Source of the DNA: a virus | Direction: 5' to 3' (one strand) | DNA length: 50,219 nt | Virus record (IMG/VR): IMGVR_UViG_3300033148_005162 | Coordinates: 1 to 50,219 of that record | Part shown: in pieces, positions 3,355 through 48,864 of the stretch | Position numbering within the stretch: position 1 is the stretch's first letter | Layout of the letters: each line of letters starts with the position of its first letter | Notes under the pieces: model-generated | The model's database searches: none | Seen by the model: the letters and a program-made list of their open reading frames with translations, nothing else | Told to the model about the DNA's origin: nothing | Position numbers and translations under genes: made by a program

Positions 3355-3639
3355 TTAATTTTCTTTTTCCATTTTCTTATCCCATTTATTTAATATCGAA
3401 TCACCGGCATAACCTATAAAAAATGACGCTGTTGGATTTAATATTCCACCCAGGTCAGCTAAAATTATAGCTGACATCGTTACAAAAAAAGCTAATATGG
3501 TTTTGTCTCGGTTATTACGTAAAAAATCGCTCCACGCAATTTCTGATTCGCGTTTTACCTTTTTCTTTAAAAAATGAATTATCATGCCTAAAATAGCCAT
3601 GAGTATTGATTGCCATACTTCCGGTATCTGTTCAACCAT
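3355..3639 (-). CDS. Holin-like small membrane protein
   Basis: The 94-residue product has a hydrophobic N-terminal helix (about residues 8-24), a basic loop, and a longer hydrophobic region (about 48-78) that can form one or two more helices, ending in a charged tail. This is the size and shape of a phage holin, and it opens the lysis cluster. The ATG at 3639 has a full AGGAGG site at good spacing, which supports the start even though it lies 52 bases inside the upstream gene. Confidence 0.65.
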   Translation of the reverse strand: MVEQIPEVWQSILMAILGMIIHFLKKKVKRESEIAWSDFLRNNRDKTILAFFVTMSAIILADLGGILNPTASFFIGYAGDSILNKWDKKMEKEN

Positions 3640-5516
3640 TGTTTATGCCTCCTATATATAGACTTTATAAAAAATGTTTGTTTAGGAATATATGCTAATA
3701 GATCTTCAGTAAATAATGTTGGTAAAATATTATTATTAAAAAGCGTGTCCGCTGCAACTTCTAATCTATAGTATTCATTCCCTGTCGTATCTATCATTAC
3801 AAAAAAAAGATTTTCGTAATTACTATTTATCGAAATTCCTGATGAAATATTACCTATGTCTTGAAATGTATAACTTGTATCATAAAGAATATAACCAACT
3901 CTACTTATTGCCATTATTGTATTCCTGGCATTTGATTTTAATATTAATTTTCTTCCCTTCCATTCAGTTTTTGTATACCATGCTGCTGTGTCGCTTGTTA
4001 AATAAGCAACGCCGTCTTCGTCATGTCTATACCATTTATTATAATTACCATTATACATTGAGACTAAAACTTCTGACGTGTATAAATTTTTAATAGAGTC
4101 AAGCTTAACATAAACTGCATTAGTATCTCCTAATGCTAATGTACACTTTCCAGCAGCAGTAAGTGTTGTAGTTTCAAGCCAAAGCCTTGGATTATTTGCT
4201 TGTTCGCTCTGGCTAAAAAAAATATTAGCATAATCTCCATCTTCACTTTGAGCACAATACTCTTGATTAGATGAATCCCACTTCATTATCCATCCATAGT
4301 TATCCCATGTACCGTGAAGAAAATTATTAATATGATTTCTTAAAGTTTCATATCCTGAACTATCTTCTGAAATTTCTGCCCATACATATCCGCTAGGATA
4401 ACGCCCTAATGCCGTTAATGCTGTATCGGTAACAGATCGATCGCCTCCTCCGCTAATTGCTGTCGAATCCCATTCAACGCCATCAACTCCGGTTTTTGCA
4501 CTATCCCATGTAGCCTCTGTTACATCCCAATCCGTTAAACATCTATCCAATGCTATATACCAATTATTTATATTCACTGGTCCATTTATCCCAAGCGTTA
4601 CTACATAAAGTGAACATGTTAAAGACATAACCGTTCCCGATATAGATGAAAAATCCATCCATAAAAGTCCTCGCCTTCTATTGCCTTCTGATTGATTTGA
4701 GATTCCAATTTTATCATATCCGTCATAATTAGTATTCTTTGTCGCTTCATCCATATATGTATCTTTTACATCTGTTGTACCTGTAATTAAGGTAGTCGGA
4801 TCAACAGTTATTGGATAAGTCATTCCGGTTGTATCTATTTTCACCTTTACAAATGTTCTAGTACCTATTTTCTTAATATTATATTCCGCTTCTCTTGTTA
4901 AATTATTCTTATCATAATAAATTATCTTTGCTAACGTAAAAGCTAATTTGTTATTTATCTTATCATAAAATTCGAATCCTTTATCAGTGTTTTTAATTTC
5001 TCTTGCCGTATGCATAATTGCAAAAATAAAACTGTCCGGTGCTGCTCGATTTTTTAATATAATATCCTCTTTTATTCCATTTGAATTTATATATCGCACT
5101 ACATCAGCATTATTGTAAGCATTCGGAAATATTACTTTAGCATACTTCACATTCCCTTTTACATGATTCGCTCCTCTAATTGGTTTTAATGTCATCTTTA
5201 CATTATTATACTCAAAATAGTATAAATCGTCATAATAGTCGCCTGTCCTTAAAATGTAATCTGCTTTATATGATTTCTTGAATATTCCAAAATTATCATT
5301 TTGCAAAGTAAATGTATGCCTTTTCCAATGTCCGGTTTTTTTATCTCTATAATTTATACCTTTACTTATTAAATATTGCAAATTTCCATTTTGCTTTCTA
5401 TGTATCACACCATCCCTACTATAAGAAAATGAATCACCTTTTCTTAACCAGCTCTGACTATTTGCATTTCCAATTACAAAAAAGATGATTATTAATATAT
5501 ACATTACTTTTTTCAT
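3588..5516 (-). CDS. Signal-peptide-bearing DNRLRE-domain surface protein (fibre or exported protein)
   Basis: The 642-residue protein begins with a classic Sec signal sequence (MKK, hydrophobic run, then NANSQS), so it is predicted to leave the cytoplasm. A beta-rich N-terminal region ends in a YPITVDPT motif near residue 240, followed by a DNRLRE-type module (about residues 250-430: a DTYMDE opening, an RRGLLWMDF strand, then WDVTEATWDS), a fold common in bacterial surface and carbohydrate-binding proteins. It sits at the 3' end of the tail gene block, where receptor-binding proteins usually lie. A signal peptide is unusual for a virion fibre. The last 17 codons overlap the holin-like gene in another frame. 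Confidence 0.7.
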   Translation of the reverse strand: MKKVMYILIIIFFVIGNANSQSWLRKGDSFSYSRDGVIHRKQNGNLQYLISKGINYRDKKTGHWKRHTFTLQNDNFGIFKKSYKADYILRTGDYYDDLYYFEYNNVKMTLKPIRGANHVKGNVKYAKVIFPNAYNNADVVRYINSNGIKEDIILKNRAAPDSFIFAIMHTAREIKNTDKGFEFYDKINNKLAFTLAKIIYYDKNNLTREAEYNIKKIGTRTFVKVKIDTTGMTYPITVDPTTLITGTTDVKDTYMDEATKNTNYDGYDKIGISNQSEGNRRRGLLWMDFSSISGTVMSLTCSLYVVTLGINGPVNINNWYIALDRCLTDWDVTEATWDSAKTGVDGVEWDSTAISGGGDRSVTDTALTALGRYPSGYVWAEISEDSSGYETLRNHINNFLHGTWDNYGWIMKWDSSNQEYCAQSEDGDYANIFFSQSEQANNPRLWLETTTLTAAGKCTLALGDTNAVYVKLDSIKNLYTSEVLVSMYNGNYNKWYRHDEDGVAYLTSDTAAWYTKTEWKGRKLILKSNARNTIMAISRVGYILYDTSYTFQDIGNISSGISINSNYENLFFVMIDTTGNEYYRLEVAADTLFNNNILPTLFTEDLLAYIPKQTFFIKSIYRRHKQWLNRYRKYGNQYSWLF

Positions 5517-5540
5517 TTCTTATAAATCCTTTCTCTATTT

Positions 5541-5987
5541 TTACACTGTTCTTCGCGGTGGCTGCTTATCAATTATTATATCCGTTGTTGATGTTGCAAT
5601 TCCAACTTGTACAATTCGTGCTTTTGCAGAACGTATTGAACCTACATCTTGCGTTAATTTTCCCGAATTGCTCGGATGTAAATATACATATTTTCCAGCC
5701 GTTAATCCAGAAAATCCTGTAACAAGACCGGTTGTTTGTATACGCACAGAAACTGATCCTCCTACTGCGGTATCTGTATAAAAACCTATAAACCGAGCGG
5801 AATCTGAGGATGTTGGATTTGCTTTATCCACAGTATTATTGCCGGAAATATATACCGCATCTTGTTGTGCTAATCCTCCGGCTGCACTCGTCATTGATAT
5901 AAAACCAAGACTTATTATATCAGCTCTTAAATTATTATGATCTGATGCTAATATCTGATCATTTATTACTACATCCGATGACTGCAT
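5541..5987 (-). CDS. Small fibre- or decoration-like virion protein
   Basis: The 148-residue protein starts with a short helical segment (VINDQILASDHNNL) and then becomes beta-rich, with GLAQQDAVYI, a SVRIQTTGLV strand and a YVYLHPSNSGKLT turn. This pattern is common in small phage fibre-associated or head-decoration proteins that carry a capsid-decoration-like beta barrel. The start lies one base after the stop of the upstream gene. The product is without a signal sequence, in contrast to its two neighbours. Function is inferred from position among tail genes. Confidence 0.6.
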   Translation of the reverse strand: MQSSDVVINDQILASDHNNLRADIISLGFISMTSAAGGLAQQDAVYISGNNTVDKANPTSSDSARFIGFYTDTAVGGSVSVRIQTTGLVTGFSGLTAGKYVYLHPSNSGKLTQDVGSIRSAKARIVQVGIATSTTDIIIDKQPPRRTV

Positions 5988-5988
5988 C

Positions 5989-6522
5989 TTAATAATCCCA
6001 TTGTCCTGTTACACGCCATTTTATTCTTGCTTTTGTACTGTCTTCTCTTGCAGCACTTGTATCAGACATGCCAAAAGTAAATTTACCCCATAATTCTTTT
6101 TGTCCTGTTGGCGTAATTCGCAAATTAGTCCATATATTATGATTTTTTGTTGAGTCATTTCTGATTATATATATCGTTCCACTCGTATCCCCCAATGGTG
6201 AATGTTGTAAGTTAGAATCATAATCGGCAATCCGAATTTGTACTGCCGGAAATCTTCCATCTGAATAATATTGTTGTATTGTGTCAGCTCCAAAACCGCA
6301 TGTATCAACTTTGTACTGTACAATTAGTGACTTTACTTCAGATACATGCGGGATTACAAAAGTAATGGAATCGTCTGCAGTTACACCTTGTGTTATGGTA
6401 TCAGTCTGAACAGGAACCAACTCTATATATCTAGGTCTATGCTTAATCTGATAAGGTACTGTGTATGCAGTTAAAAGAGAAAACACGTATATCGCCGCTA
6501 AAAATATAAAAAAGTTTCTCAT
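5989..6522 (-). CDS. Membrane-anchored or secreted small beta-rich protein
   Basis: The ATG at 6522 is preferred over an upstream codon at 6537 because it has a GGAG site nine bases away. The 177-residue product starts with a hydrophobic helix (MRNFFIFLAA to TAYTVPYQ) that would act as a signal or anchor, then a beta-rich domain with many D/T/S residues. I do not recognise the fold. Together with the DNRLRE and LamG proteins it forms a set of neighbouring products predicted to be exported. Confidence 0.65.
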   Translation of the reverse strand: MRNFFIFLAAIYVFSLLTAYTVPYQIKHRPRYIELVPVQTDTITQGVTADDSITFVIPHVSEVKSLIVQYKVDTCGFGADTIQQYYSDGRFPAVQIRIADYDSNLQHSPLGDTSGTIYIIRNDSTKNHNIWTNLRITPTGQKELWGKFTFGMSDTSAAREDSTKARIKWRVTGQWDY

Positions 6523-6549
6523 TGTTCTATACTCCAATTTTTATTATTA

Positions 6550-7146
6550 TTATGCGTCATTTGCCGTAAATGTCTGAATTACTGTTAATGTATTGCTTGC
6601 CGTTTTTGTCTCTGATATTGTTGAATGGTTGAATAATGTACCGGTATCTACTGCCGCCGTTGCGTCATCAAGAAAATGACCTATTTCAGTTAATGTTCCA
6701 ATTCCTTCAGACGGTAGCCAAAAGGTTCTTGCCTCAACTTGTATGCCTGATCTTGCTAACAAGGTAACAGCTTTTCTTTCTAATTCCGCTCCTAATGTCG
6801 TATCACTTACCGACGGAGCTGTCGAATCTGTACCAACAGCACAATATGTAATATATGTTGCCGTTGTAGCTTCATTTGCTAAAGCTTTCATAAATTCCGT
6901 TCTGCCAACTGTTGTCGTTAAATTGTCATATTCGGTACTTTTTACAAGTCCCTGCTCTAATCGTTTATCGAAATCTATTAACTCTTTATAATATTTTTTC
7001 CAATCTCCACTTTTATACAATCTCTGCAAATACTTATAAAATTCTTGTATTGTGTGTACAACATTACTAGGCGATGCAAACGTAAATAAGTCAGGATTAT
7101 GATGCTGTATTGTAATATGTCCTTTAATATTAAGATGTTGAATCAT
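6550..7146 (-). CDS. Probable baseplate or fibre-attachment protein
   Basis: The 198-residue protein has a helical N-terminal half (about residues 30-90, including a charged YKSGDWKKYYKEL stretch) and a beta-rich C-terminal half with an ERKAVTLLARSG motif and a FWLPSEGIGTLTEIGHF segment, similar in style to the C-terminal modules of baseplate-linked fibre proteins. It follows the hub gene directly and has an AAAGGAAA site. There is no signal sequence. The exact role is not resolved. Confidence 0.6.
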   Translation of the reverse strand: MIQHLNIKGHITIQHHNPDLFTFASPSNVVHTIQEFYKYLQRLYKSGDWKKYYKELIDFDKRLEQGLVKSTEYDNLTTTVGRTEFMKALANEATTATYITYCAVGTDSTAPSVSDTTLGAELERKAVTLLARSGIQVEARTFWLPSEGIGTLTEIGHFLDDATAAVDTGTLFNHSTISETKTASNTLTVIQTFTANDA

Positions 7147-7161
7147 TCATATTTCCTTTTT

Positions 7162-8865
7162 TTATCCATATACACAAAAACCATAATATCCAGGATCAGC
7201 GCATGGACTGCCGTACCTGTAAACTGTTGCAAGACTATCAATACTCGTTATTAATGTTTCGGATATTTTCCAATCATCTTTTACAACTATCGCTTTATCA
7301 ATTCCGTCTGCTTGCTGATCAGCTTTCTTTGTCTGCTCAAATAGTGTAACTAACATATCAATTGCAGATTCCGGTTTCTCAGAAAATTCTATTGAGTATG
7401 AAAAAAGTCCACCTCCATGCGCCTGTATCCGTATTGATCTTATTATATAATCACCATTACTCGGTTCACCGGTTAAATTTATCGTAAAAATTTGACCTAT
7501 CGCAAAGCCATCTTCGTAAGTGTTTGTTGATCCCGTTACAGTTACGTTTCCATATCTGTCTACTTCGACTTGCCCTCTGCGAAATGCCTCGGTTATATTA
7601 CCTATAGAATCATCTCGAATTACTTTCTCATATATTCCATCACCTTTACCCTCTTGTGTCGCAATTACGCCTTGCGTTGTCGTATCTTCTACTACTGTTA
7701 TTACTCTTATTTCATATTGATACACTACCGTTAATGTGGTTCCGGTCGGTAACGCTCCTGCCCTCCGAGTTAATGTCTTTCTCCAATAATCACACTCATA
7801 ATCTTTTGTAGTCAGATCATCTATGTTTGGAAATCCAACAGTTTTCGATGTACCATTCTCGTCTAATTGTATTGCATGTGGTTTTGCAGTTAGATTAAAT
7901 TCTGTCGTTATATCATCTCCGGAAAATGTTTCGGTTAACGGCGGTCCGAAAAATTTATCACCAATTACTGTTACTTTATTCGATGTTAATGTATAATTCG
8001 GATTTAAACTCGTACCAAAAAAATTATTTCTTGTCAAATCATTTAACTCAATTGGCGCAACTAATGTTTCTGTAGCAAAAAAATGAATATCTTTATTAGG
8101 GTCTACATAAAAATTATATCCCGTTTCACTTACTAATTTCCGAATACATTCCGCAGGTGTTATATAATCAAAACTTATATATTCGATTATCGGTCCTTCT
8201 TGGACATTATTCGTTGTAATCGCCCAATCAGAATGAACATATCCTGAAACTATATCTTCTATTATTGTTTTACATGTTTTATTCTCATATACTTCTGCTA
8301 CTAATTTTCTTGTTAAAACTATCTCATAATCCTGACAGGTAACTGAATACTGCATTGTTGTTCCGGATATGATAGAAGGCTCAGCTTCAACTATTATCCC
8401 GCCGAACAATGTCGTTGAATCTCCAATAATAACAATTTCCTGTCCCCTTACCGGAGTACTTTCCGGATCATTTAAAACAAAAGTACAGGAATCAGAACCT
8501 CGTGTTAATACCGAATCTATAATTAAAGATTGCCGATCGATTTTGTTTCCAATATCTTGGTAATTTCTGAAAATTAAAAAATTACAATAAATGTTTGTTG
8601 TTGATATATTACCTCTTAAATTAGAAATTGCAACTTTAAAATATGTCGTAGTTGGCTCTTCTACTAAATATATTCGCACATCTTGATTAGGCGTACCTAC
8701 AAAAACAATTGGTATCGAACTAAATTCAGCCGGAATACTATTCGAAAATCCGGTTAAATCAGAATATAAAATTTTTTGTGGATGATCTGGAGTACCGATT
8801 ATTTTTATATCGTTACTTAAAAATATTGTTTTATCCAATATTTTATAAGTTACCGTATCAAACAC
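7162..8865 (-). CDS. Tail hub / baseplate protein with an extra N-terminal domain
   Basis: The 567-residue protein starts at a GTG that shares its G with the upstream TAG stop. After the first 110 residues it looks like a gpD/gp27-type hub: a first beta barrel (about 115-190), a helical linker with CKTIIEDIV and CIRKLVSETGYNFYVDPN (about 195-270), then a second beta region and a C-terminal helix. The first 100 residues are homologous to the whole of the 92-residue protein at 11395-11673 (shared YSDL, AxSNLxGxxS and xNxx motifs). It lies between tape measure and fibre genes, where hub genes belong. Confidence 0.75.
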   Translation of the reverse strand: MFDTVTYKILDKTIFLSNDIKIIGTPDHPQKILYSDLTGFSNSIPAEFSSIPIVFVGTPNQDVRIYLVEEPTTTYFKVAISNLRGNISTTNIYCNFLIFRNYQDIGNKIDRQSLIIDSVLTRGSDSCTFVLNDPESTPVRGQEIVIIGDSTTLFGGIIVEAEPSIISGTTMQYSVTCQDYEIVLTRKLVAEVYENKTCKTIIEDIVSGYVHSDWAITTNNVQEGPIIEYISFDYITPAECIRKLVSETGYNFYVDPNKDIHFFATETLVAPIELNDLTRNNFFGTSLNPNYTLTSNKVTVIGDKFFGPPLTETFSGDDITTEFNLTAKPHAIQLDENGTSKTVGFPNIDDLTTKDYECDYWRKTLTRRAGALPTGTTLTVVYQYEIRVITVVEDTTTQGVIATQEGKGDGIYEKVIRDDSIGNITEAFRRGQVEVDRYGNVTVTGSTNTYEDGFAIGQIFTINLTGEPSNGDYIIRSIRIQAHGGGLFSYSIEFSEKPESAIDMLVTLFEQTKKADQQADGIDKAIVVKDDWKISETLITSIDSLATVYRYGSPCADPGYYGFCVYG

Positions 8866-11393
8866 TATTTTATCCCTTTCAAACTATCAATCTGCGCCTG
8901 CAATAACTCGATCGATCTACCAAGCTCAAATATATATCTATTTAGATTTAATCCGATTACAGGCTTAATAATACGTGTATAGTTTTGTTGTAGATATTCA
9001 CGTTTAGAACTGTAAATTTTATCCGTTACCTTATCTTTCCATGCCGTCACATAAAATTTTTTTCCGTCAATATCCGTAATCTCAACTGTAGTCTGACTAA
9101 GTTTCGCATCTATCGTTTTCCAGATGTTCTTGCGATGTATGTCTTTTTTGTTTTTATCCCGATAAAATACTTCCTGTATAACTACTTGCATATCAGCCGG
9201 TAATGTGCTATGATCCAATTCTGCATAATTTCCGGACTCAGTTCCTGCTTTATATTTTATCTGTTTAATCCTATCAATTGCCTTGTTGGATATGGCTTTC
9301 TCAGAAGTGGTTATAAATGTATCAGCCCGTACACTCATTGTCACAGTCAGGGAGCTATCCATCCACACAGGACCTGTAAACTTACCTGCTCTGGCATGTA
9401 TAGAATCTGCTGTAACTACTCCAAACTTATCTTTCGAACTATTGGCATATAATCTACGAATTTCGGCTGCGGATAATGCACGTGAGTAATATTGAAAATC
9501 GTCTATATAACCGTTGAAATAACCAGAAGGAGTGCCAGCATTCGCACCTAATCGAATATTTACATCATTTGTCTGTCTCGTACCTGAAAATATAGCAGTG
9601 TCTTGTTCAACTGCATTAATATATACTCTCATTGTTTCTGCACAAACTGTAGCAGTTATATGATGCCATTTATTAATAGTTAGCACATTAGATGCTATCA
9701 AATCTATGTAACTTATACCATTCCCTAAACTAAACCGTATACCACCACTTGTTACTTGATTCAACATAAAGGGCATCATATGGGTATCACCATCTCGTTT
9801 ACTAACTATTTGAGGTGCTCCTGTAACATCTTTAACTGGTTTCATCCAAAGAAGAATTGTAAAATTAGTATCCGATTCGAAAGATGTCTCATTTGACAAT
9901 GTTATATAATCATCAATTCCATCAAAACTATATCCGCCTGTCCCAACTTTAAATGAATCTGGTTGTGATATATTTGTAGCTCCTACCACAGTACCATTAT
10001 TACTATTTCCTGAATAATCATTAGCGTTTTCATCAAAGGGATAATAACCCTTCAACGAATCCCTACTTATTCCATCCAATGAAGCCGATATTGAAATATG
10101 CGCCTTCACACTATCATCAAACGCCGCCCGTGCAAGTTTAGTTGCTAAACTATCATTTACCTCAGTTTTTAACGAATATTGAGGATGATCATTATCTGAT
10201 AATCCAGACAATAATCCATGATCACTAATTCCACTTCCGGAAGCGGTTCCATGTACTTGTCTTACATCAGTTAATATAGCATCGTCAAAATCAGTACAAT
10301 TAGCTTGATAAACTAACCACATTAATCTAACCGCATGATAAGCATCTTCATATTGGATTGTCGGAGCATCCTTTGCTAATGCTCCTGTTGACGTATTAGA
10401 CAAACTCGATTCCAATGCCATTTGAACTTCAATATGTTCAAGATTGTAAAAATAAATTAAAGCCTTATACCATTTATTATTAACAACTGGAACTTTTCTT
10501 CCCTCTGTCTCACTCCAAACACTATCAGTAGGCATCTCCTTAAAGGAAGCCATACTATCAAGAGAAGACCATCTCATCCTACCACGATATTTTCCAGCTC
10601 TACATGTATCTGAAGTTACTAAAGTATCAACTACTATTTTATGCAAACCCTTATCAAAATAAACACCATTATTTAATTTTAATTGTTTTGTCCCCGGTAC
10701 ATTTGTCACTGTCATTCCGGAATAAACTAACGCTCCATGAACATCAGCAAAATAATCATATGAATTATACCATCTGTTGTGTAATTCATGTTCTGCAAGA
10801 TAATTCATTGGATACTCATCAGTCATTATTTCACCGAGTACAACAATATTCTTTTTATTATTACTATTGACATTATCTCTTGGATCACTATTACTTAAAA
10901 GTATAACATCTCCCGAATCTTTATGTACATAAAGATAATTTTCAGCATCGGCAACTAAAGTACATGTCCTTGCAAAATATGTGTATAGTGTATCTCCAAA
11001 TATAATACTACATGCAGGAACAGAAACATATAAATCATTATCATAAATATTACTAATGATAAAGGAATCATTATTGGCAATTCCCTGGCTTCCAGAGTTC
11101 TTAAATACGATCTTATCTAACTTTGATACTATCGATTGAGAATTAACTAGAGAATCTTTAACAATTTTTTTAATTTCCGCCATTGTAATAATTAATGAAT
11201 CGTTTACTCTATTTGATTTATAAACATATTTAACCTGTAATGTATCCGGAATATCTACAAATCCACTATCATCAGGTGTGATTTTATCAACTTTCAAAGA
11301 ATCTTTTATTGTAAAATCTACAGCAGATCCCGCCTGTCCTAATACTATTACCGGAAACAAGATTATACATGATATTATAACGAATATTTTCAT
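8865..11393 (-). CDS. Tail fibre-like protein with signal peptide, LamG domain and S74-like C-terminus
   Basis: I place the start at ATG 11393, five bases after a GGGAG site, giving 842 residues that begin with a signal sequence ending near VLGQAG. A beta-rich N-terminal part contains a GLSDNDHPQY motif near residue 400, typical of phage fibres. A LamG/concanavalin A-like module follows (about 448-651: YYPFDENANDYSG, FDGIDDYI, WHHITATV, YIDDFQYYSRALS). The last 145 residues resemble the intramolecular chaperone of S74-type fibres, with a TSEKAISNKAIDRIKQIKY segment and a final coiled coil. It is the best candidate for a receptor- or glycan-binding fibre. The signal peptide is unexpected for such a protein. 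Confidence 0.75.
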   Translation of the reverse strand: MKIFVIISCIILFPVIVLGQAGSAVDFTIKDSLKVDKITPDDSGFVDIPDTLQVKYVYKSNRVNDSLIITMAEIKKIVKDSLVNSQSIVSKLDKIVFKNSGSQGIANNDSFIISNIYDNDLYVSVPACSIIFGDTLYTYFARTCTLVADAENYLYVHKDSGDVILLSNSDPRDNVNSNNKKNIVVLGEIMTDEYPMNYLAEHELHNRWYNSYDYFADVHGALVYSGMTVTNVPGTKQLKLNNGVYFDKGLHKIVVDTLVTSDTCRAGKYRGRMRWSSLDSMASFKEMPTDSVWSETEGRKVPVVNNKWYKALIYFYNLEHIEVQMALESSLSNTSTGALAKDAPTIQYEDAYHAVRLMWLVYQANCTDFDDAILTDVRQVHGTASGSGISDHGLLSGLSDNDHPQYSLKTEVNDSLATKLARAAFDDSVKAHISISASLDGISRDSLKGYYPFDENANDYSGNSNNGTVVGATNISQPDSFKVGTGGYSFDGIDDYITLSNETSFESDTNFTILLWMKPVKDVTGAPQIVSKRDGDTHMMPFMLNQVTSGGIRFSLGNGISYIDLIASNVLTINKWHHITATVCAETMRVYINAVEQDTAIFSGTRQTNDVNIRLGANAGTPSGYFNGYIDDFQYYSRALSAAEIRRLYANSSKDKFGVVTADSIHARAGKFTGPVWMDSSLTVTMSVRADTFITTSEKAISNKAIDRIKQIKYKAGTESGNYAELDHSTLPADMQVVIQEVFYRDKNKKDIHRKNIWKTIDAKLSQTTVEITDIDGKKFYVTAWKDKVTDKIYSSKREYLQQNYTRIIKPVIGLNLNRYIFELGRSIELLQAQIDSLKGIK

Positions 11394-11394
11394 A

Positions 11395-11673: not shown

Positions 11674-11680
11674 TATTGCT

Positions 11681-14326
11681 TTATATCCTTAAGACTCTAG
11701 ATCGACGTTCTACTTCTCGACCAATTTCTTTTGCAACTTCTTTTGCTAATAAATTTTTATTATTCATTACAGATTGTCCAACTCCTGTAATATCAACTTT
11801 ACCAACATTTACTGTAATATTCCCATCTGTTCCAAATCCGCCTCGTTGTGCAGCAGCTTTACGGATAAAATCAGACAACTCAGGCGGTAAAACCATCTCA
11901 CGAGCATGTAACAATGCAGGCATATCAAAAGGAACAATACCCCCTCGTTGAAATGCCGCACCTTCAACACCTCCCGCTCCGTGGCCACCCATACGTTCAA
12001 GTTCCATTCCCTTTTGTTCTAATGCTTTTGCCGCTTCTTCAACTTTTGTTGCCCCATGTTCTAATTTAAATTTTTCTAATTCTTTCTCCCTTGCTTCTGC
12101 TGCAGCTGCTAACTCCTCCGGCGTCTTTTTTCTAGCACCAAATAGTTTCTTTATACTACCAACTATTTTTGACACACCAAAAGCAGCTGTAGCAATTATA
12201 CCACCACTGGCGGCAGTCCCAAGTAGATTACCACCAAAAGAAGAAATTAAATCAGATAACCCACTACCTACTTTACCCAAAACAGAACCAAGACCTTTTC
12301 CAAGCTTACTAACCAATCCGCTAAATACTCCGCCTAATCCCTTTTTTATACCCCCGCCTAAATCTTTGACAGTACCCGAAATCATATTTTTGATGAACTT
12401 ATGAATGTATTCATGAAGTATTTGTTGGAAAGAACCAATCACCGATTTCTTTATACCGTCAAATGTACTTCCTATAAGATCGCCAAAATTTTTAAAACTC
12501 ATATTCTGTTGCATAATCATAGTTGCAGATGCATCCGCCATACTGTCAAGATGTCTTTCCCAGTCAATCTTGATTTCGCTAAATATACTTTTAGTTTTCT
12601 TAGGCAATAAGTTATACCCTTCATCCCCGGTGATTTTATAAAGATGCTTAGCAATTGCTCGTTCTTGATCTGTTAAAGAATCAAATTGTCCTTTTTTTAT
12701 CTTATCAATTACAGTTAATGTTGCTTCTTTGTATTCATCTAAGTTCATGCCGACTTTTTCAGAATACTTCTGCATATCAACAAGATTATCTTCAAAATAT
12801 TCCGACCATTCCCTTTGAGCTTTAGTTAATGTATTTATATTTTCAATATCTATTTCGCCTAATGATTTTTCATAACTTTTTTGAAATTCATCAATACCTC
12901 TTTGAAGTTCATCAACAGTTAAATCTTGAGCTTCTTTGACTGCTTCAAAACTATTGTTAACATGTTCGACCATAGTATCGAGCGATGTTTTTTCTGCTTC
13001 TTCTAATTCTGTTATTTTCGCCTTTTCTTCTTCAACTTGTGTTTTTCTTAATTCTCTTCGTTCATTATAATAATCTGACCAAGTCTTAGATTGCGCTTCC
13101 TTTGATTTTTCGTTCCTTTCCTCAATTCTTGCATTAATTGCTTCTAATTCAGCTTCTAGTTCAGATGTATCTTCTCCAAACAATTTTTTTATTACTATTT
13201 GTCCTTCTAGTATTATTGCTTTTGCTTTATCTATTGTATTCGCAATTCCTACCATAAACAAATCGATATAATCTTTTAATGTATCAAATGTAGCTCCAAT
13301 TGCATCAGCTACCACACCGGTAATATCTTGAATACCTAATAAATTTGTATTCCACGCTGTGTATAATCCAACAACTGCTGTTGTAATACCCATTACTGCC
13401 AATGTTATTGGATTAAATGCTGCAACTAAGGTAGGTAACAATATTAATATTGGACCTATTGCGGCAGCTAATGCACCAAATGTTGTTACAACAGCAGTAA
13501 TTGTTGTAGCAACACTTTTATTTTTATCTATCCATTCCACAGCTTCCTTTATAAAATCAGATGCCTTACTAGTTATACTTACCAATGACGGTAAAAATCC
13601 TTCAACTATTTTTTGTGTTAATCCAAAGATACCGGTTTTTAATTCATTTATATTATCATTAAAATCTGCTGCTGCATCTGCTGTATTTTGATCTAATTCC
13701 AATCCAAGTGCTGCAGCTTCTTCCTGCAAATTTTTGATTCCATCTCCACCTTGTTTCAAAAGAGGAACCATATCTGCTCCGGAACGTCCAAATATATTCT
13801 GAGCTAATGCTGCTGCTTTTGTATCATCTTTCATTCCTTTTAATGCTTCTGCAACTTCAAGCAACACATCATTGGAATTTTTTAAATTTCCATTTGAATC
13901 TGTAACTTTAATATCCAACGCTTCGAACGAATCTTTTGCCTCACCGGTTCCTTTTGCGGCATCATTCATATTTTTGGCTAATTTTCTCAATCCGTTTGTT
14001 ACAGTAGCAAAACTTGTTCCTGATTGTTCAGCAGCAAATTTTAATGTAGACAATTTTTCAGTTGCAACGCCTGTACGAATTCCGGCTTTTTGTATTTCAT
14101 CACCGAATTTAGTTACTTTTGATACTACAGCGGTAAATGTTGCAGTAATCGCAGTACCCGCAGCGGTTAAACCAATGCCGATCTTTTTTATAGAATCGTT
14201 CCATTTAGATACTGATTTTTCAGCTGAACTGGTTTTATTAATCGCTTCAGATACAGCTTTTTTAAATTTATCACTATTCAGAATTAATTCTAATTCAGCT
14301 TTACCAATTGATACCGCACTACTCAT
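11681..14326 (-). CDS. Tape measure protein
   Basis: The 881-residue protein is the longest in the tail block apart from the fibres. It has the usual tape-measure layout: an N-terminal helical domain (a gp TMP core with SGTSFATVTNGLRKL near 110-125 and FGRSGADMVPLL near 185), a hydrophobic membrane-active segment at about 275-330, a long charged coiled coil (about 365-560), a glycine-rich stretch near 655-715 and a basic C-terminus. It sets tail length and probably lines the tube; 881 residues would fit a tail of roughly 130 nm by the usual rule. The start shares a base with the upstream frameshift gene stop. Confidence 0.9.
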   Translation of the reverse strand: MSSAVSIGKAELELILNSDKFKKAVSEAINKTSSAEKSVSKWNDSIKKIGIGLTAAGTAITATFTAVVSKVTKFGDEIQKAGIRTGVATEKLSTLKFAAEQSGTSFATVTNGLRKLAKNMNDAAKGTGEAKDSFEALDIKVTDSNGNLKNSNDVLLEVAEALKGMKDDTKAAALAQNIFGRSGADMVPLLKQGGDGIKNLQEEAAALGLELDQNTADAAADFNDNINELKTGIFGLTQKIVEGFLPSLVSITSKASDFIKEAVEWIDKNKSVATTITAVVTTFGALAAAIGPILILLPTLVAAFNPITLAVMGITTAVVGLYTAWNTNLLGIQDITGVVADAIGATFDTLKDYIDLFMVGIANTIDKAKAIILEGQIVIKKLFGEDTSELEAELEAINARIEERNEKSKEAQSKTWSDYYNERRELRKTQVEEEKAKITELEEAEKTSLDTMVEHVNNSFEAVKEAQDLTVDELQRGIDEFQKSYEKSLGEIDIENINTLTKAQREWSEYFEDNLVDMQKYSEKVGMNLDEYKEATLTVIDKIKKGQFDSLTDQERAIAKHLYKITGDEGYNLLPKKTKSIFSEIKIDWERHLDSMADASATMIMQQNMSFKNFGDLIGSTFDGIKKSVIGSFQQILHEYIHKFIKNMISGTVKDLGGGIKKGLGGVFSGLVSKLGKGLGSVLGKVGSGLSDLISSFGGNLLGTAASGGIIATAAFGVSKIVGSIKKLFGARKKTPEELAAAAEAREKELEKFKLEHGATKVEEAAKALEQKGMELERMGGHGAGGVEGAAFQRGGIVPFDMPALLHAREMVLPPELSDFIRKAAAQRGGFGTDGNITVNVGKVDITGVGQSVMNNKNLLAKEVAKEIGREVERRSRVLRI

Positions 14327-15100: not shown

Positions 15101-15113
15101 AGATATACTATTC

Positions 15114-15195
15114 CTTTATGTAATATATTATCATAATAAATTATTTTATTATTTCTTTATATAATATATTATCATAATAAATTATTTTGTTATTT
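15114..15195. repeat. Two tandem copies of a 41-bp AT-rich repeat
   Basis: Bases 15114-15154 and 15155-15195 are the same 41-bp unit with two differences. They lie in the gap between the tail tube gene and the chaperone gene and contain TATTATCATAATAAATTA. The first copy ends 14 bases before the chaperone start, so on the message it would be in the leader. A role in setting the relative output of tail tube and chaperone is possible. Confidence 0.85.
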
Positions 15196-15237
15196 ATTAT
15201 GTCGCTAACAACAAATAATGAATTAAAATATTATTTA

Positions 15238-15756: not shown

Positions 15757-15784
15757 TATTTGTACTCCTTATTGTAAATTATAC

Positions 15785-16204
15785 TTATTTATCCTTTCTA
15801 ATTTGAAATCTATAATACCCATAAACCTGAGGGTATCCCTGATTAATTGATCGGCTTGTGTTCGGACCTCCGTTTAACTCCGAATAATAAATCCTTGCCG
15901 TTCCTGCATTATATCCACCTTTATGATCTATGATTGTACGTATTCTATTCCAAAGCTCCCAAGCTTTTTTTTTAGAATGTTCTCTACATACAATTTGTAT
16001 TCTTGCATCTTCTATCGGATCATAATCCGGATACGAAAAGGAACCGTCACGTTTTATCAATATCGCTTTTACCGGTGTTTCTGCACCAAATTCATCAAGA
16101 TTAATTGCAATTCCGCTATCAACAGTTCCTAATACTTGCTCGGAAATATAGGTTTTAATCTCTTTTTGCACATCTTTATATTTTACCGTATAATAATCTG
16201 GCAT
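15785..16204 (-). CDS. Tail terminator / minor capsid-type connector protein
   Basis: The 139-residue protein has an N-terminal helix (VKYKDVQKEIKTYI), a central ARIQIVCREHS strand followed by a helix (KKAWELWNRIRTII) and final strands, the order seen in tail terminator proteins that cap the tube at the head end. Its place between the gp10-like gene and the tail tube gene is the usual one. I cannot name the exact family. Confidence 0.65.
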   Translation of the reverse strand: MPDYYTVKYKDVQKEIKTYISEQVLGTVDSGIAINLDEFGAETPVKAILIKRDGSFSYPDYDPIEDARIQIVCREHSKKKAWELWNRIRTIIDHKGGYNAGTARIYYSELNGGPNTSRSINQGYPQVYGYYRFQIRKDK

Positions 16205-16223
16205 TTTTTACATATCCGTTCTG

Positions 16224-16724
16224 CTATTTACTTCCCTTATTTTTTGATATTAGATATTTTTTCATCGCAGTTTCAACAGCTTTAATTTGTTTTAATGATG
16301 TCTCAAATAATGCTGGCGCCATAAAAGGCTGTGCAGGTTGTCCTGCTGTCGATTTCCTAACTATCCAATTTCCTTGTTTGTCTTGCCACGCCATCGCTCT
16401 TTTTACTTTCGGCGTAATTCTTTTTTTGAACGGACCGTGAATACCTGTCCCGGTTTCAATTTCAGCAGCATGATCCGCATGCGCTATTATTTGTGTACTG
16501 TGTTTTTTTCCTGCATCAGTAGATTGCACTGTTTTCGTCGCTGCGATACTTTGCTTTAAATCTCCCGTATCTACAACTACCCGATCTTTAGCCTCAGACT
16601 CTACTGTTAAAGATGCTGCAATTAATAATTTATGCTGTTGTGTTATCGGTAAATCAAGTACATCTTTTACAATATCACAGGGTTTTTTTGTCCAGAACGC
16701 TCCGCCTTTTTGATTCGATGGCAT
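16224..16724 (-). CDS. HK97 gp10-like tail completion protein
   Basis: The 166-residue product has the pattern of this family: an N-terminal helix ending in KDRVVVDTGDLKQSI (the conserved T/DTG-L-S motif), a strand with HADHAAEIETGTGIHGP (the conserved YA-xxxExGT motif) and a C-terminal QPFMAPAL motif followed by a long helix. These proteins join head and tail. It lies between a decoration-like gene and the tail terminator gene. Confidence 0.85.
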   Translation of the reverse strand: MPSNQKGGAFWTKKPCDIVKDVLDLPITQQHKLLIAASLTVESEAKDRVVVDTGDLKQSIAATKTVQSTDAGKKHSTQIIAHADHAAEIETGTGIHGPFKKRITPKVKRAMAWQDKQGNWIVRKSTAGQPAQPFMAPALFETSLKQIKAVETAMKKYLISKNKGSK

Positions 16725-17821
16725 TAATCTAATTTCCTATAAACTACTACAAAATATAAACCTGCAATATTTTCTCCCGTTCCGGTCTTTGTAAAATGCG
16801 CAGATAAATAATCTCCTGATTCCATCAATCCCTGTTTTTCTTCTATTGTACCGACATCGGAAAAAATACCCTGAGTCAATGCGGTACCTGCTGCATATGT
16901 CCCGCCAATTAATATCGATCCGATTTTACTCGTATAATTTATTTTAAAATCAATCTTCTCATAATTTGAATCGTCATCAGCCGCATGATCTTCTTTAGCT
17001 CCTATATATATTTTTTCAATCTGTAATTTTCCATTTGCATATAAGAGCACACAAACTTTGTCGTCATCATCGGCTGCGGTAATATCTCCGGCAGAATGTA
17101 CTAATGAAAAATATCTTGTTTGTGCATTTGGCTGAGTTATAATACCCTCGAGGGATACGTTAAAAATATCATCTCCGCCCTCCTCTTCCTTTACCGATAA
17201 GTGATCTCTGACAGTTTGATCGCTTGTAATTATCCCGTTTGTATCTCTAGAATTTATTACTTGATTTTCTGCGGTAATTGAACTCGATGCCGTTTCGTTA
17301 ATGCTGTACTCTAAATGCACAACAAGTCCGGATAATGCCATTCCGGAACCTGCTTTAGTAATGTCAAGATAAATTCCTTCTCCGGCTGTAAGGACCTTAT
17401 GCGTTGAATCTAATGTTGCACTTGATGATGGCGTTGCTAATGTATAGCCGTCTTCCGTTGTTATTGTTGCAATCGTGTTACCGTCTGAATCTTTAAAAGC
17501 CATTGATTGATAATTTGAAGAATCTGACGATACCGTTGTATCAACTGATATCCGCAATCGTTCAATCGTTACCGGTTTGTATGCAATAAATAACGGATCT
17601 AGATAATCATTATCTCCATAATCAGCCGCAATATCTCCTATCGGAATATGTGCAGTTCTGTGATCATATCCGGACGTTGTTATTAATTCACCATATTTGT
17701 TCAAATGCGCGACTTCTGTACCGGATTTTTTAAAGAGAAGCGAATCACTATTATTAGATTCTATTATTTCAAGTACAGAATCGCTTCCGCCTATATCGTC
17801 ATTAAATGATAATAATCCCAT
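16724..17821 (-). CDS. Virion protein with two copies of a repeated beta domain
   Basis: The 365-residue protein contains two copies of a domain of about 115 residues (about 62-175 and 243-365). Each opens with GDIxAAD, has an SNY(Q/E) strand, a charged turn and ends in xSGMALSGLVV or xGENIAGLYFVV. The third copy makes up most of the neighbouring protein at 17861-18385. The repeats are beta-rich and lack catalytic motifs, so decoration of head or connector, or a fibre role, is likely. GGGAG precedes the start. Confidence 0.6.
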   Translation of the reverse strand: MGLLSFNDDIGGSDSVLEIIESNNSDSLLFKKSGTEVAHLNKYGELITTSGYDHRTAHIPIGDIAADYGDNDYLDPLFIAYKPVTIERLRISVDTTVSSDSSNYQSMAFKDSDGNTIATITTEDGYTLATPSSSATLDSTHKVLTAGEGIYLDITKAGSGMALSGLVVHLEYSINETASSSITAENQVINSRDTNGIITSDQTVRDHLSVKEEEGGDDIFNVSLEGIITQPNAQTRYFSLVHSAGDITAADDDDKVCVLLYANGKLQIEKIYIGAKEDHAADDDSNYEKIDFKINYTSKIGSILIGGTYAAGTALTQGIFSDVGTIEEKQGLMESGDYLSAHFTKTGTGENIAGLYFVVVYRKLD

Positions 17822-17860
17822 TTTCTATTCTCCCAAATTATTAATTATTTATATATTTTG

Positions 17861-18385
17861 TTATTCCGTCAACGTGTAAAATAATATTAATGTCAATCCT
17901 GATATTGCTTGTCCACTACTAGTTTTTGTAAATGTCATTTCAACATGGTCATCTGATGACAGAACCTTATGTGTACCGTCTAAGGCTCCCATGGATTGCG
18001 GTGCTGTTGAACCTGCTGTAAACACCGGCGTCCATGCATAGGATACTATTACATTTCCATCCGAATCTTCTAATTCTATTGTTTGATAATTTACGGCATC
18101 GTTGGTTTTTGTTTCATCAGCAGTAAGATAGGCGGCGTACAATGTTGCTGCGTGTTCTTTAGAAAAAACTACCTTTTTTATAGAATCTGAATCAGCTGCA
18201 ATATCACCAACATTTACAACTTCATAAAAATACTGCTGATTTGATGTTGTAGCAGGTAAACCATTTATGTCGATGGAAAATGTTTCAGACGAGTCTTTAG
18301 AGAAAGTTAAAAAATCCCCTGAATTTTTATTGATTTCAATTACTGCTCGGGATGGGCGTTTTGCTTCTATTTGCAATACTGGCAT
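17861..18385 (-). CDS. Virion protein with one copy of the repeated beta domain
   Basis: This 174-residue protein has a leader of about 55 residues and one copy of the domain found twice in the next gene: GDIAAD near residue 60, NYQTIELEDSDGN near 100, LDGTHKVLSSDD near 137 and SSGQAISGLTLILF at the end. It lies among head-tail joining genes, so it may be a decoration or neck appendage. It has a GGGAG site. Confidence 0.6.
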   Translation of the reverse strand: MPVLQIEAKRPSRAVIEINKNSGDFLTFSKDSSETFSIDINGLPATTSNQQYFYEVVNVGDIAADSDSIKKVVFSKEHAATLYAAYLTADETKTNDAVNYQTIELEDSDGNVIVSYAWTPVFTAGSTAPQSMGALDGTHKVLSSDDHVEMTFTKTSSGQAISGLTLILFYTLTE

Positions 18386-18424
18386 TTTGAAATCTCCCTT
18401 TTATATATATATTTTTCTATATGC

Positions 18425-18601
18425 TTATTTCTTTTTTTGTTTACCTGATTCACTCGACTTTGTCTTTGATACTTTTGTTCTTTCTATTTCATACTCTACG
18501 GCGTTTTTTAAATGCGGAAAATCTTTAAATAACTTATTTTTTTCATCTACTGACATATTTCCGTTTATTATGTCTCTAACTATTTTATTTCTATTTTTCA
18601 T
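18425..18601 (-). CDS. Small lysine-rich protein, 58 residues
   Basis: This short gene starts in an ATGA overlap with the stop of the connector gene at 18598 and has an AAGGAG site ten bases upstream. The product is very basic (a KVSKTKSSESGKQKKK tail) with a helical middle. A small protein fitted between head-tail connector and decoration genes may bind DNA or assist assembly; I do not recognise a family. Confidence 0.65.
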   Translation of the reverse strand: MKNRNKIVRDIINGNMSVDEKNKLFKDFPHLKNAVEYEIERTKVSKTKSSESGKQKKK

Positions 18602-18924
18602 AATTTAAATTCTCCTTGTTTTATTCCGATTTCTATTTCTTGCATATCGCCGAAAAAATCGGGTGCCCTATTTAACATTACAATAGAATATTCTATTCCA
18701 TTTATTACTATTAAGTCATTCGGATTTACAGCAGTATTTCCCGGAAGAAAAACCGTTCCGTCAATTTCTACGAATGTTCCGGTTGAATCTTTAGATAATT
18801 TCTTAATCAATTCATATCTGCAGTTTAATATAGTTTCATTATACCTTTCCGGTTCTCCATATTCACTTTCAGATTCTAAAGTTTTTATCGTACACTCTTG
18901 AAACATCGGAATTATTGATACCAT
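18598..18924 (-). CDS. Head closure / head-tail adaptor-like protein
   Basis: The 108-residue protein is mostly beta with a central TFVEIDGTVFLPG segment and a hydrophobic DLIVINGIEYSIV strand pair. This barrel-like pattern and its place right after the connector gene fit a head-closure (stopper) protein such as SPP1 gp16 or HK97 gp7 relatives. It has an AAAGGA site. Confidence 0.65.
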   Translation of the reverse strand: MVSIIPMFQECTIKTLESESEYGEPERYNETILNCRYELIKKLSKDSTGTFVEIDGTVFLPGNTAVNPNDLIVINGIEYSIVMLNRAPDFFGDMQEIEIGIKQGEFKL

Positions 18925-18968
18925 TTAAATCCTTTATATTGTTAATTTTGATAATTTATATTATACAA

Positions 18969-19472
18969 TTATGCAATTGCTCTTCGTCTTGGCAATTGTG
19001 TCAATATTCCTTTAAGTCCTTTACCGTAGTTCGCTTGCCACCTACCTATCATTTGAGTTGACAATCCAATCGGATTTGCTAATACATATAATGCAGTTTG
19101 CGCTATGACCATTTTTACTTTATTAGTCGGTTCTGCATTTCCATACGTATAGGAAATTACTATATTGTTTCGCCCTTTTGTCCAACCTGAGGAATAATAA
19201 AATGCATTTTTTTGCATATCTACTTCTATATAACTTGTTGAAATTTCCACATCGTCAATTGTTACATCTGTAATTGTTAATATTGGTGCCTTTTTCGGAA
19301 ATAATAAAATTCCTCCATGCCCTGAATGTATTTCGTTCGATTCCGTTCCCTCACGATAATATATTCGCTGATATTCCTGTACAATATTTTCAGCAACTTG
19401 CAAAGTTTCTTCAGGAACATCTTTACCTGTTATTGTTTTCGCTTCTGTTGTTGTACAAAGTAAAGCCGACAT
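18969..19472 (-). CDS. Head-tail connector protein (gp6/gp15-like)
   Basis: The 167-residue protein starts with helices (TTEAKTITGKDVPEETLQVAENIVQEY), followed by strands with a PILTITDVTID motif and a GRNNIVISYTYG motif, and a C-terminal helix. These are hallmarks of the connector family that binds below the portal. The position before the stopper and gp10-like genes agrees with this. Confidence 0.75.
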   Translation of the reverse strand: MSALLCTTTEAKTITGKDVPEETLQVAENIVQEYQRIYYREGTESNEIHSGHGGILLFPKKAPILTITDVTIDDVEISTSYIEVDMQKNAFYYSSGWTKGRNNIVISYTYGNAEPTNKVKMVIAQTALYVLANPIGLSTQMIGRWQANYGKGLKGILTQLPRRRAIA

Positions 19473-19530
19473 ATATTATTGTACCTTATATTTACATTAT
19501 CAATTTTTCACAATTTATTAATCTTTTTTT

Positions 19531-21195
19531 TTATTGTGGCACATAAATTCTAATCCAATTTACTGTTGTAGATACTGACGGTCTTGATGCATATATTCTC
19601 AATGTATCAACTGTCGGATACGCTATAAATCTTAATGCGGAATCAGCCAACGCTCCACCGGTTGCCTCCTCTGAAACTATTACAATATCTGTTGATTTCA
19701 TACCGTTAACATATGTTGCTACGGAACCGACAGAAGTAAATGTTACTGAACCTGCAAATTTTGTACTGTTCGAAGCAAAGACTTCAGAAACCTTTATAGT
19801 GTCTATATCTGCCGAACCTGCATTTATAGAATCGGCATCAGCTCTTAAATTGTCTGTATATAATTCTCTGAAACGTCCTGTTGGTGCCTCTATAATTCCG
19901 GTTTTAATTTTTCCATTTTCTATTACCGAACCTCCAATTGTAGCACCACTTATTTTTGCATATCCATTTGATTCATAAACTCCCGGTGTCAATTTCCATA
20001 GTTCTCCACCTGAAGAATTTTCTGTCCCTGTATATAAATGTCCCTGAAATGGAATTATAAATCTAATAGCTGTATTTGTTGTATCTCCAAAACCCCGAGC
20101 TGAGGCAGGGAAAAATACATTTGTGTCCGGATCGGTATAAAATATTTTCGCTCCGTTCGCCGATTTTGTCCCAAGAAACAATTTACCTGCATATACTGTA
20201 GCAGCAGTTACCCTGTCCTGATTCCTTACTACCGATTCACCAAATCCCGAATCGCTATAAAATGTAACAGCTGTCCATGCTGTGTCTCTTGTAGCATTGG
20301 TACGGTATACCCTGACACCGTTTGAATCTCCGACAACTGCATACAAATGTTTATCTACTTGAATTAATTTATCAATTGTTGTTGATAGTACTCTTGTTAC
20401 CGTTGCAGAAGTTACACCGGAATCAGAAAGCGCTTTATTCCAATTTATCAAGTCTTTCGTTCTGTACATTTGCGCTCCGGTTCGATTATGTGTCCCTGCC
20501 CATAAATATCCATTAAATTGTTCAAAAGTAAGCACGCCGACATTTAAAGAATTTCCATTAACAAATCCATTCGTGTCTGATGCTGTAAATGTAGATAGAT
20601 CGGTAGTATAATATGTTTCTGCTCCGCCTTGTGTGGATTGTGAATTATAATATGAAACAACTAATTTACCGTCGAATACAGTCATTGCAGTAATAGAATC
20701 GTTATCAGCATCACCTTGTCCATTTGTATCTATCACGGTGAATATTGTATCATCCGGTGTCTGCGTTGCATATAATCGACCTCTACCAAGTGTATCACTC
20801 ATTGCTACAATAAGGCGATCTTTATATTCAATCATACCGGTAATGCTTGCATTCGATGTATCATTTAGACCAAGCAGGTTTGTTAATGTTACAGCTTCAA
20901 TTCCATCGGATTCATTTAATGTATATATCGCGACCGGCTGTTGGTTTGTAACATTTGTTCCAATCCATAATTTATTTCCATATACTGTTGCAACGGAAAG
21001 TGCAGTATTAGCAGTATTGCCAAGTCCATTTGTGCCAACCTGCTGCCACTCCGTTGTGTCGATTACAAATTCCGTTAATCGATACGGTTCCAAGATTGAT
21101 GTACCTATCGGAAATTGTGCTCTTGTTGGCATCACTATCGAAACTATTGCTAAAATTATAATTGTAACAATAAAAAATGTTATTATATTTTTCAT
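19531..21195 (-). CDS. Secreted seven-bladed beta-propeller protein
   Basis: The 554-residue protein starts with a Sec signal sequence (basic MKN, long hydrophobic run, PTRAQ) and is then built of repeats. I count seven copies of a Y/F-x-G-x-L-W/Y-x-G-T-type strand: YGNKLWIGT, YKDRLIVAM, FDGKLVVSY, FNGYLWAGT, VDKHLYAVV, YAGKLFLGT and FQGHLYTGT. That predicts a seven-bladed propeller over about residues 50-400. A C-terminal region of some 140 residues is beta-rich with a fibre-like GxFxxLYTDNL segment. It is odd to find it between head genes; it may be a head fibre, an exported factor or a surface-binding protein. Confidence 0.7.
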   Translation of the reverse strand: MKNIITFFIVTIIILAIVSIVMPTRAQFPIGTSILEPYRLTEFVIDTTEWQQVGTNGLGNTANTALSVATVYGNKLWIGTNVTNQQPVAIYTLNESDGIEAVTLTNLLGLNDTSNASITGMIEYKDRLIVAMSDTLGRGRLYATQTPDDTIFTVIDTNGQGDADNDSITAMTVFDGKLVVSYYNSQSTQGGAETYYTTDLSTFTASDTNGFVNGNSLNVGVLTFEQFNGYLWAGTHNRTGAQMYRTKDLINWNKALSDSGVTSATVTRVLSTTIDKLIQVDKHLYAVVGDSNGVRVYRTNATRDTAWTAVTFYSDSGFGESVVRNQDRVTAATVYAGKLFLGTKSANGAKIFYTDPDTNVFFPASARGFGDTTNTAIRFIIPFQGHLYTGTENSSGGELWKLTPGVYESNGYAKISGATIGGSVIENGKIKTGIIEAPTGRFRELYTDNLRADADSINAGSADIDTIKVSEVFASNSTKFAGSVTFTSVGSVATYVNGMKSTDIVIVSEEATGGALADSALRFIAYPTVDTLRIYASRPSVSTTVNWIRIYVPQ

Positions 21196-48820: not shown

Positions 48821-48864
48821 CCTGATGCTCAGGATGTGCAGCAGCTGAGCATTCAGGCTTTTTT
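48821..48864 (+). terminator. Stable hairpin with T-tract facing the plus strand
   Basis: CCTGATGCTCAG (48821-48832) pairs with CTGAGCATTCAGG (48845-48857) with a single bulge, followed by TTTTTT on the plus strand. The T-run overlaps the stop codon of the minus-strand gene. On the minus strand there is an A-run before the stem and no U-run after. Confidence 0.6.

What the first reader, a model, noticed from the sequence alone, without database searches (positions are those of the whole stretch)
3588..21195. Four structural-operon proteins carry Sec signal sequences
Proteins at 3588-5516, 5989-6522, 8865-11393 and 19531-21195 all start with a basic N-terminus and a hydrophobic run, three of them with a Q at the predicted cleavage site (NANSQ, VLGQA, TRAQF). 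Phage tail and head proteins are normally assembled in the cytoplasm without signals. Either these proteins are exported by the infected cell (surface remodelling, exclusion, adhesion) or the phage has captured host surface proteins, or the signals are used in a new way for fibre attachment.
Basis: partly seen in the sequence, partly recalled or inferred. Interest (0 to 1): 0.75.

Follow-up and report, generated by a model that had tools for sequence, protein, structure and literature searches.

The report
Phage tail fibres with export signals
This phage encodes fibre-like virion proteins that begin with the bacterial 'export me' signal and carry the processing and probable sugar-attachment marks of exported host proteins, suggesting that some phages pass their fibres through the host periplasm instead of assembling everything in the cytoplasm.

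Summary
The four proteins are sharp outliers for an N-terminal basic plus hydrophobic segment. Their ribosome sites lie before it, and three have [A/G/S]|Q at a valid signal peptidase I site (the Bacteroidetes 'Q-rule'). A second, independent mark supports export: the Bacteroidetes O-glycosylation motif D(S/T)(A/I/L/V/M/T) occurs 37 times against 10.9 expected in these four, and 31 against 26.6 in the other structural proteins.
The signal is kept in a relative. Phage L331 has a 42%-identical homologue of 8865-11393 with signal and Q, beside a second Q-rule signal protein; a third directly follows its major head protein. Together these three also carry the glycosylation motif (39 vs 11.2). A fibre from another phage that aligns with the same core has no signal.
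The core of 8865-11393 resembles phage receptor-binding proteins (phi812, p2) by fold search, from a model of modest confidence. At least twelve other IMG/VR phages put signals on fibre-type proteins.
Best reading: fibres exported by Sec, cleaved, probably glycosylated, meeting virions at lysis. Export is strongly supported in silico; the virion role is likely; the meeting at lysis is inference. Free receptor-blocking fibres remain possible. I found no published description of signal-bearing tail fibres.

The parts
3588..5516 (-). Exported structural/fibre-type protein, 642 aa; DNRLRE/CBM96 domain (residues 251-420, nt 4257-4766)
   Evidence: PF24517 9.8e-7; NF033679 DNRLRE 1.4e-9; phrog_37549 virion structural protein 1.8e-13
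5457..5516 (-). Sec signal peptide MKKVMYILIIIFFVIGNANS|Q
5989..6522 (-). Exported or membrane-anchored 177-aa protein of unknown family; signal/anchor at nt 6463-6522
   Evidence: no family found; D[ST][AILVMT] motif 5 vs 0.8 expected
8865..11393 (-). Exported tail fibre / receptor-binding-type protein, 842 aa
   Evidence: homologue with signal in L331, 42% over 338 aa, E=5e-65; signal-less L290 fibre aligns with same core; fold hits to phage RBPs and tail fibres
11337..11393 (-). Sec signal peptide MKIFVIISCIILFPVIVLG|Q
10176..10223 (-). Phage-fibre motif DHGLLSGLSDNDHPQY (residues 391-406)
   Evidence: same motif in many phage fibres; coordinates
9459..9923 (-). LamG/concanavalin A-like domain (Laminin_G_3, residues 491-645)
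   Evidence: PF13385 1.2e-28; phrog_8510 virion structural protein; a LamG-like domain by eye also follows the motif in L421
19531..21195 (-). Exported 554-aa protein in the head module, propeller-like repeats by eye; between head genes and the head-tail adaptor
   Evidence: fold model poor (pLDDT 40)
21118..21195 (-). Sec signal peptide MKNIITFFIVTIIILAIVSIVMPTRA|Q
2077..2835 (-). Spanin-like protein with N-terminal TM segment; also rich in the O-glycosylation motif (3 vs 0.3)
1002..1610 (-). Endolysin (Glyco_hydro_108 + PG_binding_3), end of the late operon
7162..8865 (-). Tail hub protein without signal (internal control)
   Evidence: PF05954 3.4e-4; 33% to the hub of the L250-type phages
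6550..7146 (-). Small tail-fibre-type protein without signal
   Evidence: phrog_5417 2.7e-13, phrog_4176 tail fiber 7.6e-7
11681..14326 (-). Tape measure protein used to find relatives
23480..24997 (-). Major head protein
   Evidence: phrog_10 2.5e-15

Best explanation
The window is a siphophage-type genome with a 48-bp direct terminal repeat, so probably complete, of a host that follows the Q-rule (Bacteroidota/FCB type). Several of its fibre and accessory virion-type proteins are made as Sec pre-proteins. Step 1 (strongly supported): host Sec exports them and signal peptidase I cleaves after A/G/S, exposing Q, which host glutaminyl cyclase would cap as pyroglutamate. Step 2 (supported by motif statistics): in the periplasm they are O-glycosylated at D(S/T)(A/I/L/V/M/T). 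Step 3 (supported by homology, fold and gene place): at least 8865-11393, and probably 3588-5516 and 19531-21195, are virion-type fibre or decoration proteins. Step 4 (inferred): with no lipobox and no type IX signal they wait in the periplasm and join virions when the lysis genes, next in the operon, open the cell. Tail fibres and tailspikes of T4 and P22 are known to join finished particles in lysates (established knowledge, not tested here).
For: Hydrophobic N-termini unique to these four in the structural operon; correct starts. Q at +1 in 3 of 4, and in 19 of 26 signal proteins gathered from this and other phages, against 10.7% background. O-glycosylation motif 37 vs 10.9 (p=4e-10) with reverse and E/N controls flat; other structural proteins 31 vs 26.6; 55 signal-less fibres of the same motif class 270 vs 317. 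Replicated in phage G339 (39 vs 11.2, p=7e-11) and G340 (19 vs 6.5). Signal plus Q kept in the L331 homologue. Signal-less L290 fibre aligns with the same core (E=1.6e-5). Fold hits are phage phi812 baseplate, cyanophage A-1(L) tail fibre and lactococcal p2 RBP. The signals cluster after the tape measure gene: 29/190 vs 6/377 upstream; with a redundant family excluded still 13/163 vs 6/337, p=0.002. Signal-bearing proteins elsewhere match tail fibre PHROGs (L264), BppL_N (L278) and tail protein (L424). In L331 a signal protein directly follows the major head protein.
Against: No proteomics: virion membership and cleavage are not shown. Six cultured Bacteroidota phages have no such fibres, and 60 of 61 fibres with the motif in L332-L409 have no signal, so this is a minority trait. 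5989-6522 lacks Q. Motif enrichment is absent in some signal-fibre phages (L264, G029, L314, G342). Use of Shine-Dalgarno sites (81%) is unlike Bacteroidia, so the host, and whether it glycosylates, is uncertain. The fold model is modest (pLDDT 59, low TM-scores). 3588-5516 and its L331 neighbour are only weakly alike.
Confidence: 0.5

Rival explanations
1. Free exported receptor binders: the proteins are fibre-derived lectins released to the periplasm or surface to block receptors, give superinfection exclusion, or keep debris from trapping progeny. They are not virion parts.
For: Signals and periplasmic marks; lipoprotein arrays occupy the same slot in L250-L255 phages; LamG and CBM96-type carbohydrate-binding domains; a signal-less fibre-type protein (6550-7146) exists beside them.
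Against: No lipobox, no type IX C-terminal domain, so no known route to the outer surface. Genes are spread through head and tail modules rather than in a separate cargo gene. In L278 and L304 no signal-less fibre candidate was seen between hub and lysis genes.
Confidence: 0.28
2. The hydrophobic N-terminus is an uncleaved membrane anchor or tail-attachment helix, for example docking tails at the membrane or inserting during infection.
For: Hydrophobic runs are long; 5989-6522 has no clear cleavage site.
Against: A helix for attachment has no reason to end in [A/G/S]|Q in 19 of 26 cases, nor to go with the periplasmic glycosylation motif.
Confidence: 0.1
3. Captured host surface proteins: the phage picked up host secreted adhesin genes with their signals and uses them for lysogenic conversion.
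For: DNRLRE, LamG and propeller-like repeats are common in secreted proteins; LamG matches occur in host genomes.
Against: The non-LamG core of 8865-11393 was found related to phage fibres only; the DHxxLxGLxDDDHPQY motif and RBP fold are of phage type; no integrase or lysogeny genes were noticed in the window; the positions are structural.
Confidence: 0.1

Closest known systems
Q-rule signal-peptide genes of Porphyromonas gingivalis phages (Nixviridae; PMC10367356)
   Same: Phage genes with Sec signals and Q after the cleavage site, read as adaptation to the host's export pathway
   Different: Those are five genes of unknown function; here the signal sits on fibre-type proteins inside the structural operon, with a receptor-binding fold and a glycosylation-motif signature
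Lactococcal phage p2 receptor-binding protein / phi812 baseplate fibre / cyanophage A-1(L) tail fibre
   Same: Fold of the 97-440 core of 8865-11393
   Different: These are tail proteins of other phages and no Sec signal is known to me on them
Bacteroidetes general protein O-glycosylation system (motif D(S/T)(A/I/L/V/M/T); PMC8550257)
   Same: Motif enriched in the exported phage proteins; in B. fragilis glycosylation requires export, and removing a signal peptide abolishes it
   Different: No phage virion protein is discussed as a substrate in the passages read; glycosylation here is only predicted
Phage spanins, holins and superinfection-exclusion lipoproteins
   Same: Phage-encoded exported proteins
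   Different: Small lysis or exclusion proteins, not 500-850-aa fibre-type proteins in head and tail modules

Membership tests
Sec/SPase I substrate following the Bacteroidetes Q-rule | n-region charge, h-region, (-3,-1) small residues, Q at +1 | tested here: met
   3 of 4 proteins; 19 of 26 in the wider set; not tested with SignalP; 5989-6522 lacks the Q
Sec/SPase I substrate following the Bacteroidetes Q-rule | Actual cleavage and pyroglutamate in vivo | not testable with these tools
   needs N-terminal proteomics
Phage tail fibre / receptor-binding protein (8865-11393) | Homology or fold of phage fibres/RBPs | tested here: met
   L331 and L290 alignments; Foldseek to phi812, A-1(L), p2, from a model of pLDDT 59
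Phage tail fibre / receptor-binding protein (8865-11393) | Place in the tail module | tested here: met
   between tape measure and hub/lysis genes
Phage tail fibre / receptor-binding protein (8865-11393) | Presence in virions and receptor binding | not testable with these tools
   no virion proteome
Bacteroidetes O-glycoprotein | Exported protein with D(S/T)(A/I/L/V/M/T) sites above chance | tested here: met
   37 vs 10.9, controls flat
Bacteroidetes O-glycoprotein | Glycan attached; host carries the glycosylation genes | not testable with these tools
   host unknown
Type IX secretion cargo | C-terminal secretion domain | tested here: not met
   no C-terminal secretion domain hit in Pfam at E up to 1
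Surface lipoprotein | Lipobox cysteine after the h-region | tested here: not met
   none in the four signal sequences
DNRLRE domain protein (3588-5516) | DNRLRE/CBM96 profile above curated cut-off | tested here: met
   38.2 bits vs 34; 29.2 vs 26

The most novel reading that the evidence does not exclude
A widespread, undescribed mode of virion assembly: some tailed phages route their receptor-binding fibres (and a head-module protein) through the host Sec pathway, where they are trimmed and O-glycosylated by host enzymes, and load them onto virions in the periplasm at lysis.
Probability: 0.35. Interest if true: 0.92.

Novelty: new variant of a known kind. Interest (0 to 1): 0.76.

Why it matters
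Tailed-phage fibres are taken to be cytoplasmic products. Fibres with working export signals would mean a two-compartment assembly. They would allow host-made modifications (pyroglutamate, glycans, disulfides, calcium) on receptor-binding proteins, and would make phage fibres visible to surface and periplasmic biology. It also gives a simple sequence test, signal plus Q plus glycosylation motif, for host phylum and for exported virion proteins in metagenomic phages, and it warns annotators who treat a signal peptide as proof that a gene is bacterial.

Tried and rejected
Single-protein pattern searches for relatives of the head protein, 19531-21195 and 3588-5516 found none. Phage-collection searches with 3588-5516 and with pieces of 8865-11393 and 19531-21195 gave nothing useful, and the whole 8865-11393 gave only LamG hits. 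TerL relatives lead mostly to phages or host contigs without homologues of the four. A class-wide search of 294 genomes with 3588-5516 gave two weak matches. The fold of 19531-21195 was too poor to use. A PDB sequence search found LamG-type hits for 8865-11393 and nothing significant for the others. 19531-21195 and the signal protein after the L331 head gene are not detectably related. Known Bacteroidota phages checked do not share the trait. Idea that the signals are start-codon artefacts: rejected. Idea that the glycosylation motif is a general fibre habit: rejected. Literature searches for signal-bearing tail fibres found none, but most subscription journals are not held.

Full report
Setting. 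The window is an IMG/VR virus record of 50,219 bases, 34% GC, with a 48-bp direct terminal repeat, so probably complete. All main genes run on the - strand: TerS/TerL, portal-MuF, protease, major head protein, connectors, tail tube, tape measure, hub, fibre slot, holin-like protein, spanin-like protein and endolysin. There is no close relative in the collections searched.

Observation. In N-terminal hydrophobicity they stand apart from every other structural protein (2.64-3.45 against at most 1.7). Their ATGs have ribosome sites, and no alternative ATG with a ribosome site follows the hydrophobic run. Three end in a valid signal peptidase I site followed by Q.

What the Q means. Bacteroidetes signal peptidase I substrates have Q at +1 in about 71% of cases on average. 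Ignavibacterium album also scores 77%, while Q-values across the rest of the FCB group and other phyla are not consistently high (PMC5837995). P. gingivalis phages have been reported with five Q-rule genes of unknown function (PMC10367356). Over 26 signal-bearing proteins gathered here from the window and other phages, 19 have the Q motif against a 10.7% background. These were found by hydrophobicity, position or homology and not by Q, although the list was assembled by hand; one of the 19 (L232:998-1597) has its Q motif farther from the hydrophobic run than a true site would be.

A second mark of export. The motif D(S/T)(A/I/L/V/M/T) is the general O-glycosylation site of Bacteroidetes, and modification requires export (PMC8550257). 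It is enriched 3.4-fold in the four proteins (37 vs 10.9, p=4e-10) and present in the spanin-like protein (3 vs 0.3), but not in the other structural proteins (31 vs 26.6) nor in early proteins (3 vs 4.1). Reversed, E- and N-versions are flat. Signal proteins of FCB hosts show 1.6-2.6-fold enrichment; a small Firmicutes set of seven signal proteins also showed 7 vs 3.0, so the motif is not perfectly specific. Fifty-five signal-less phage fibres show none (0.85-fold). The effect repeats in phages G339 (3.5-fold) and G340 (2.9-fold), and is absent in G342, G344, L314 and G029, which may have other hosts.

What the proteins are. For 8865-11393, residues 97-426 are 42% identical (E=5e-65) to L331:5659-7398, which also starts with a signal ending ACA|Q. 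The core aligns with fibre L290:7996-9885, which has no signal (E=1.6e-5). It contains DHGLLSGLSDNDHPQY, a motif found in many phage fibres. A model from 15 sequences (pLDDT 59) matches the phi812 baseplate, the cyanophage A-1(L) tail fibre and lactococcal p2 RBP, and viral proteins including putative RBPs; TM-scores are low, so this is supportive rather than conclusive. A LamG domain follows. 3588-5516 has a DNRLRE/CBM96 domain and matches a virion structural PHROG. 19531-21195 sits in the head module. In L331, a different phage with another TerL family and a portal/connector-type gene, signal proteins lie between TerL and portal and directly after the major head protein.

How general. Relatives by tape measure carry signal proteins after the tape measure gene in 29 of 190 genes against 6 of 377 before it. 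With one redundant family left out the figure is 13/163 vs 6/337, p=0.002. Examples are L304 (five tandem Q-rule proteins), L278 (two, one with BppL_N), L264 (531-aa tail fibre PHROG match; 744-aa spike-like protein by eye), L314, G029, and L250/L254/L255, where the signal and the next ~100 residues are kept while the fibre middle differs. Fibres with the DDHPQY motif add L331, L381, L422, L424, L434, L446 and L462. Several of these have ordinary A|x sites without Q, so the trait may extend beyond Q-rule hosts. Most fibres with the motif have no signal.

Mechanism. Export and cleavage are well supported in silico; glycosylation is predicted from motif statistics. No lipobox or type IX domain was found, so the periplasm is the expected place of rest. 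The next genes in the operon are lysis genes. The simplest scheme is that exported fibres wait in the periplasm and join virions at lysis, as T4 fibres and P22 tailspikes can join finished particles in extracts (established knowledge, not tested here). The rival, that they act as free receptor blockers, cannot be excluded.

Host. Strong Shine-Dalgarno use (81%) is unlike Bacteroidia hosts and their phages (0-10%), but like the Cloacimonadota and Melioribacteraceae contigs examined (83%), which themselves include prophage genes. The order PAPS reductase - ParB - TerS - TerL is shared with Bacteroides phage BS-TP2 and Riemerella phage RAP44. The host is therefore probably an FCB-type bacterium, not further resolved.

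Noticed in passing
L250:14845-17171, L252, L254, L255: Arrays of one to five lipoproteins, mostly paralogous and ~146 aa, sit between tail hub and the signal-bearing fibre; possibly an exclusion or decoy gene set.
   Followed up: partly
30219-31991: The large terminase has a ~160-residue insertion (about residues 277-435) absent from its homologues.
   Followed up: no
26746-29877: Portal fused to a Mu F-type domain, with a C-terminal region that looks ADP-ribosyltransferase-like by eye; Pfam did not confirm this.
   Followed up: partly
3-674 and 48863-49435: Two paralogous proteins lie at the two ends of the contig.
   Followed up: no
1-48 and 50172-50219: 48-bp direct terminal repeat: the record is probably a complete genome.
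   Followed up: partly
whole window: 81% of genes have strong Shine-Dalgarno sites although the signal peptides follow the Bacteroidetes Q-rule; an unusual pairing that could identify the host group.
   Followed up: partly
L246 (Flavobacterium phage FCL-2) 45363-45806: A cultured flavophage carries a Q-rule signal protein with the fibre-like sequence VGIATTTPTETLDVNG; a possible laboratory model.
   Followed up: no
33232-34032: Radical SAM protein of the PA0069/mobile-pair type in a phage genome.
   Followed up: no
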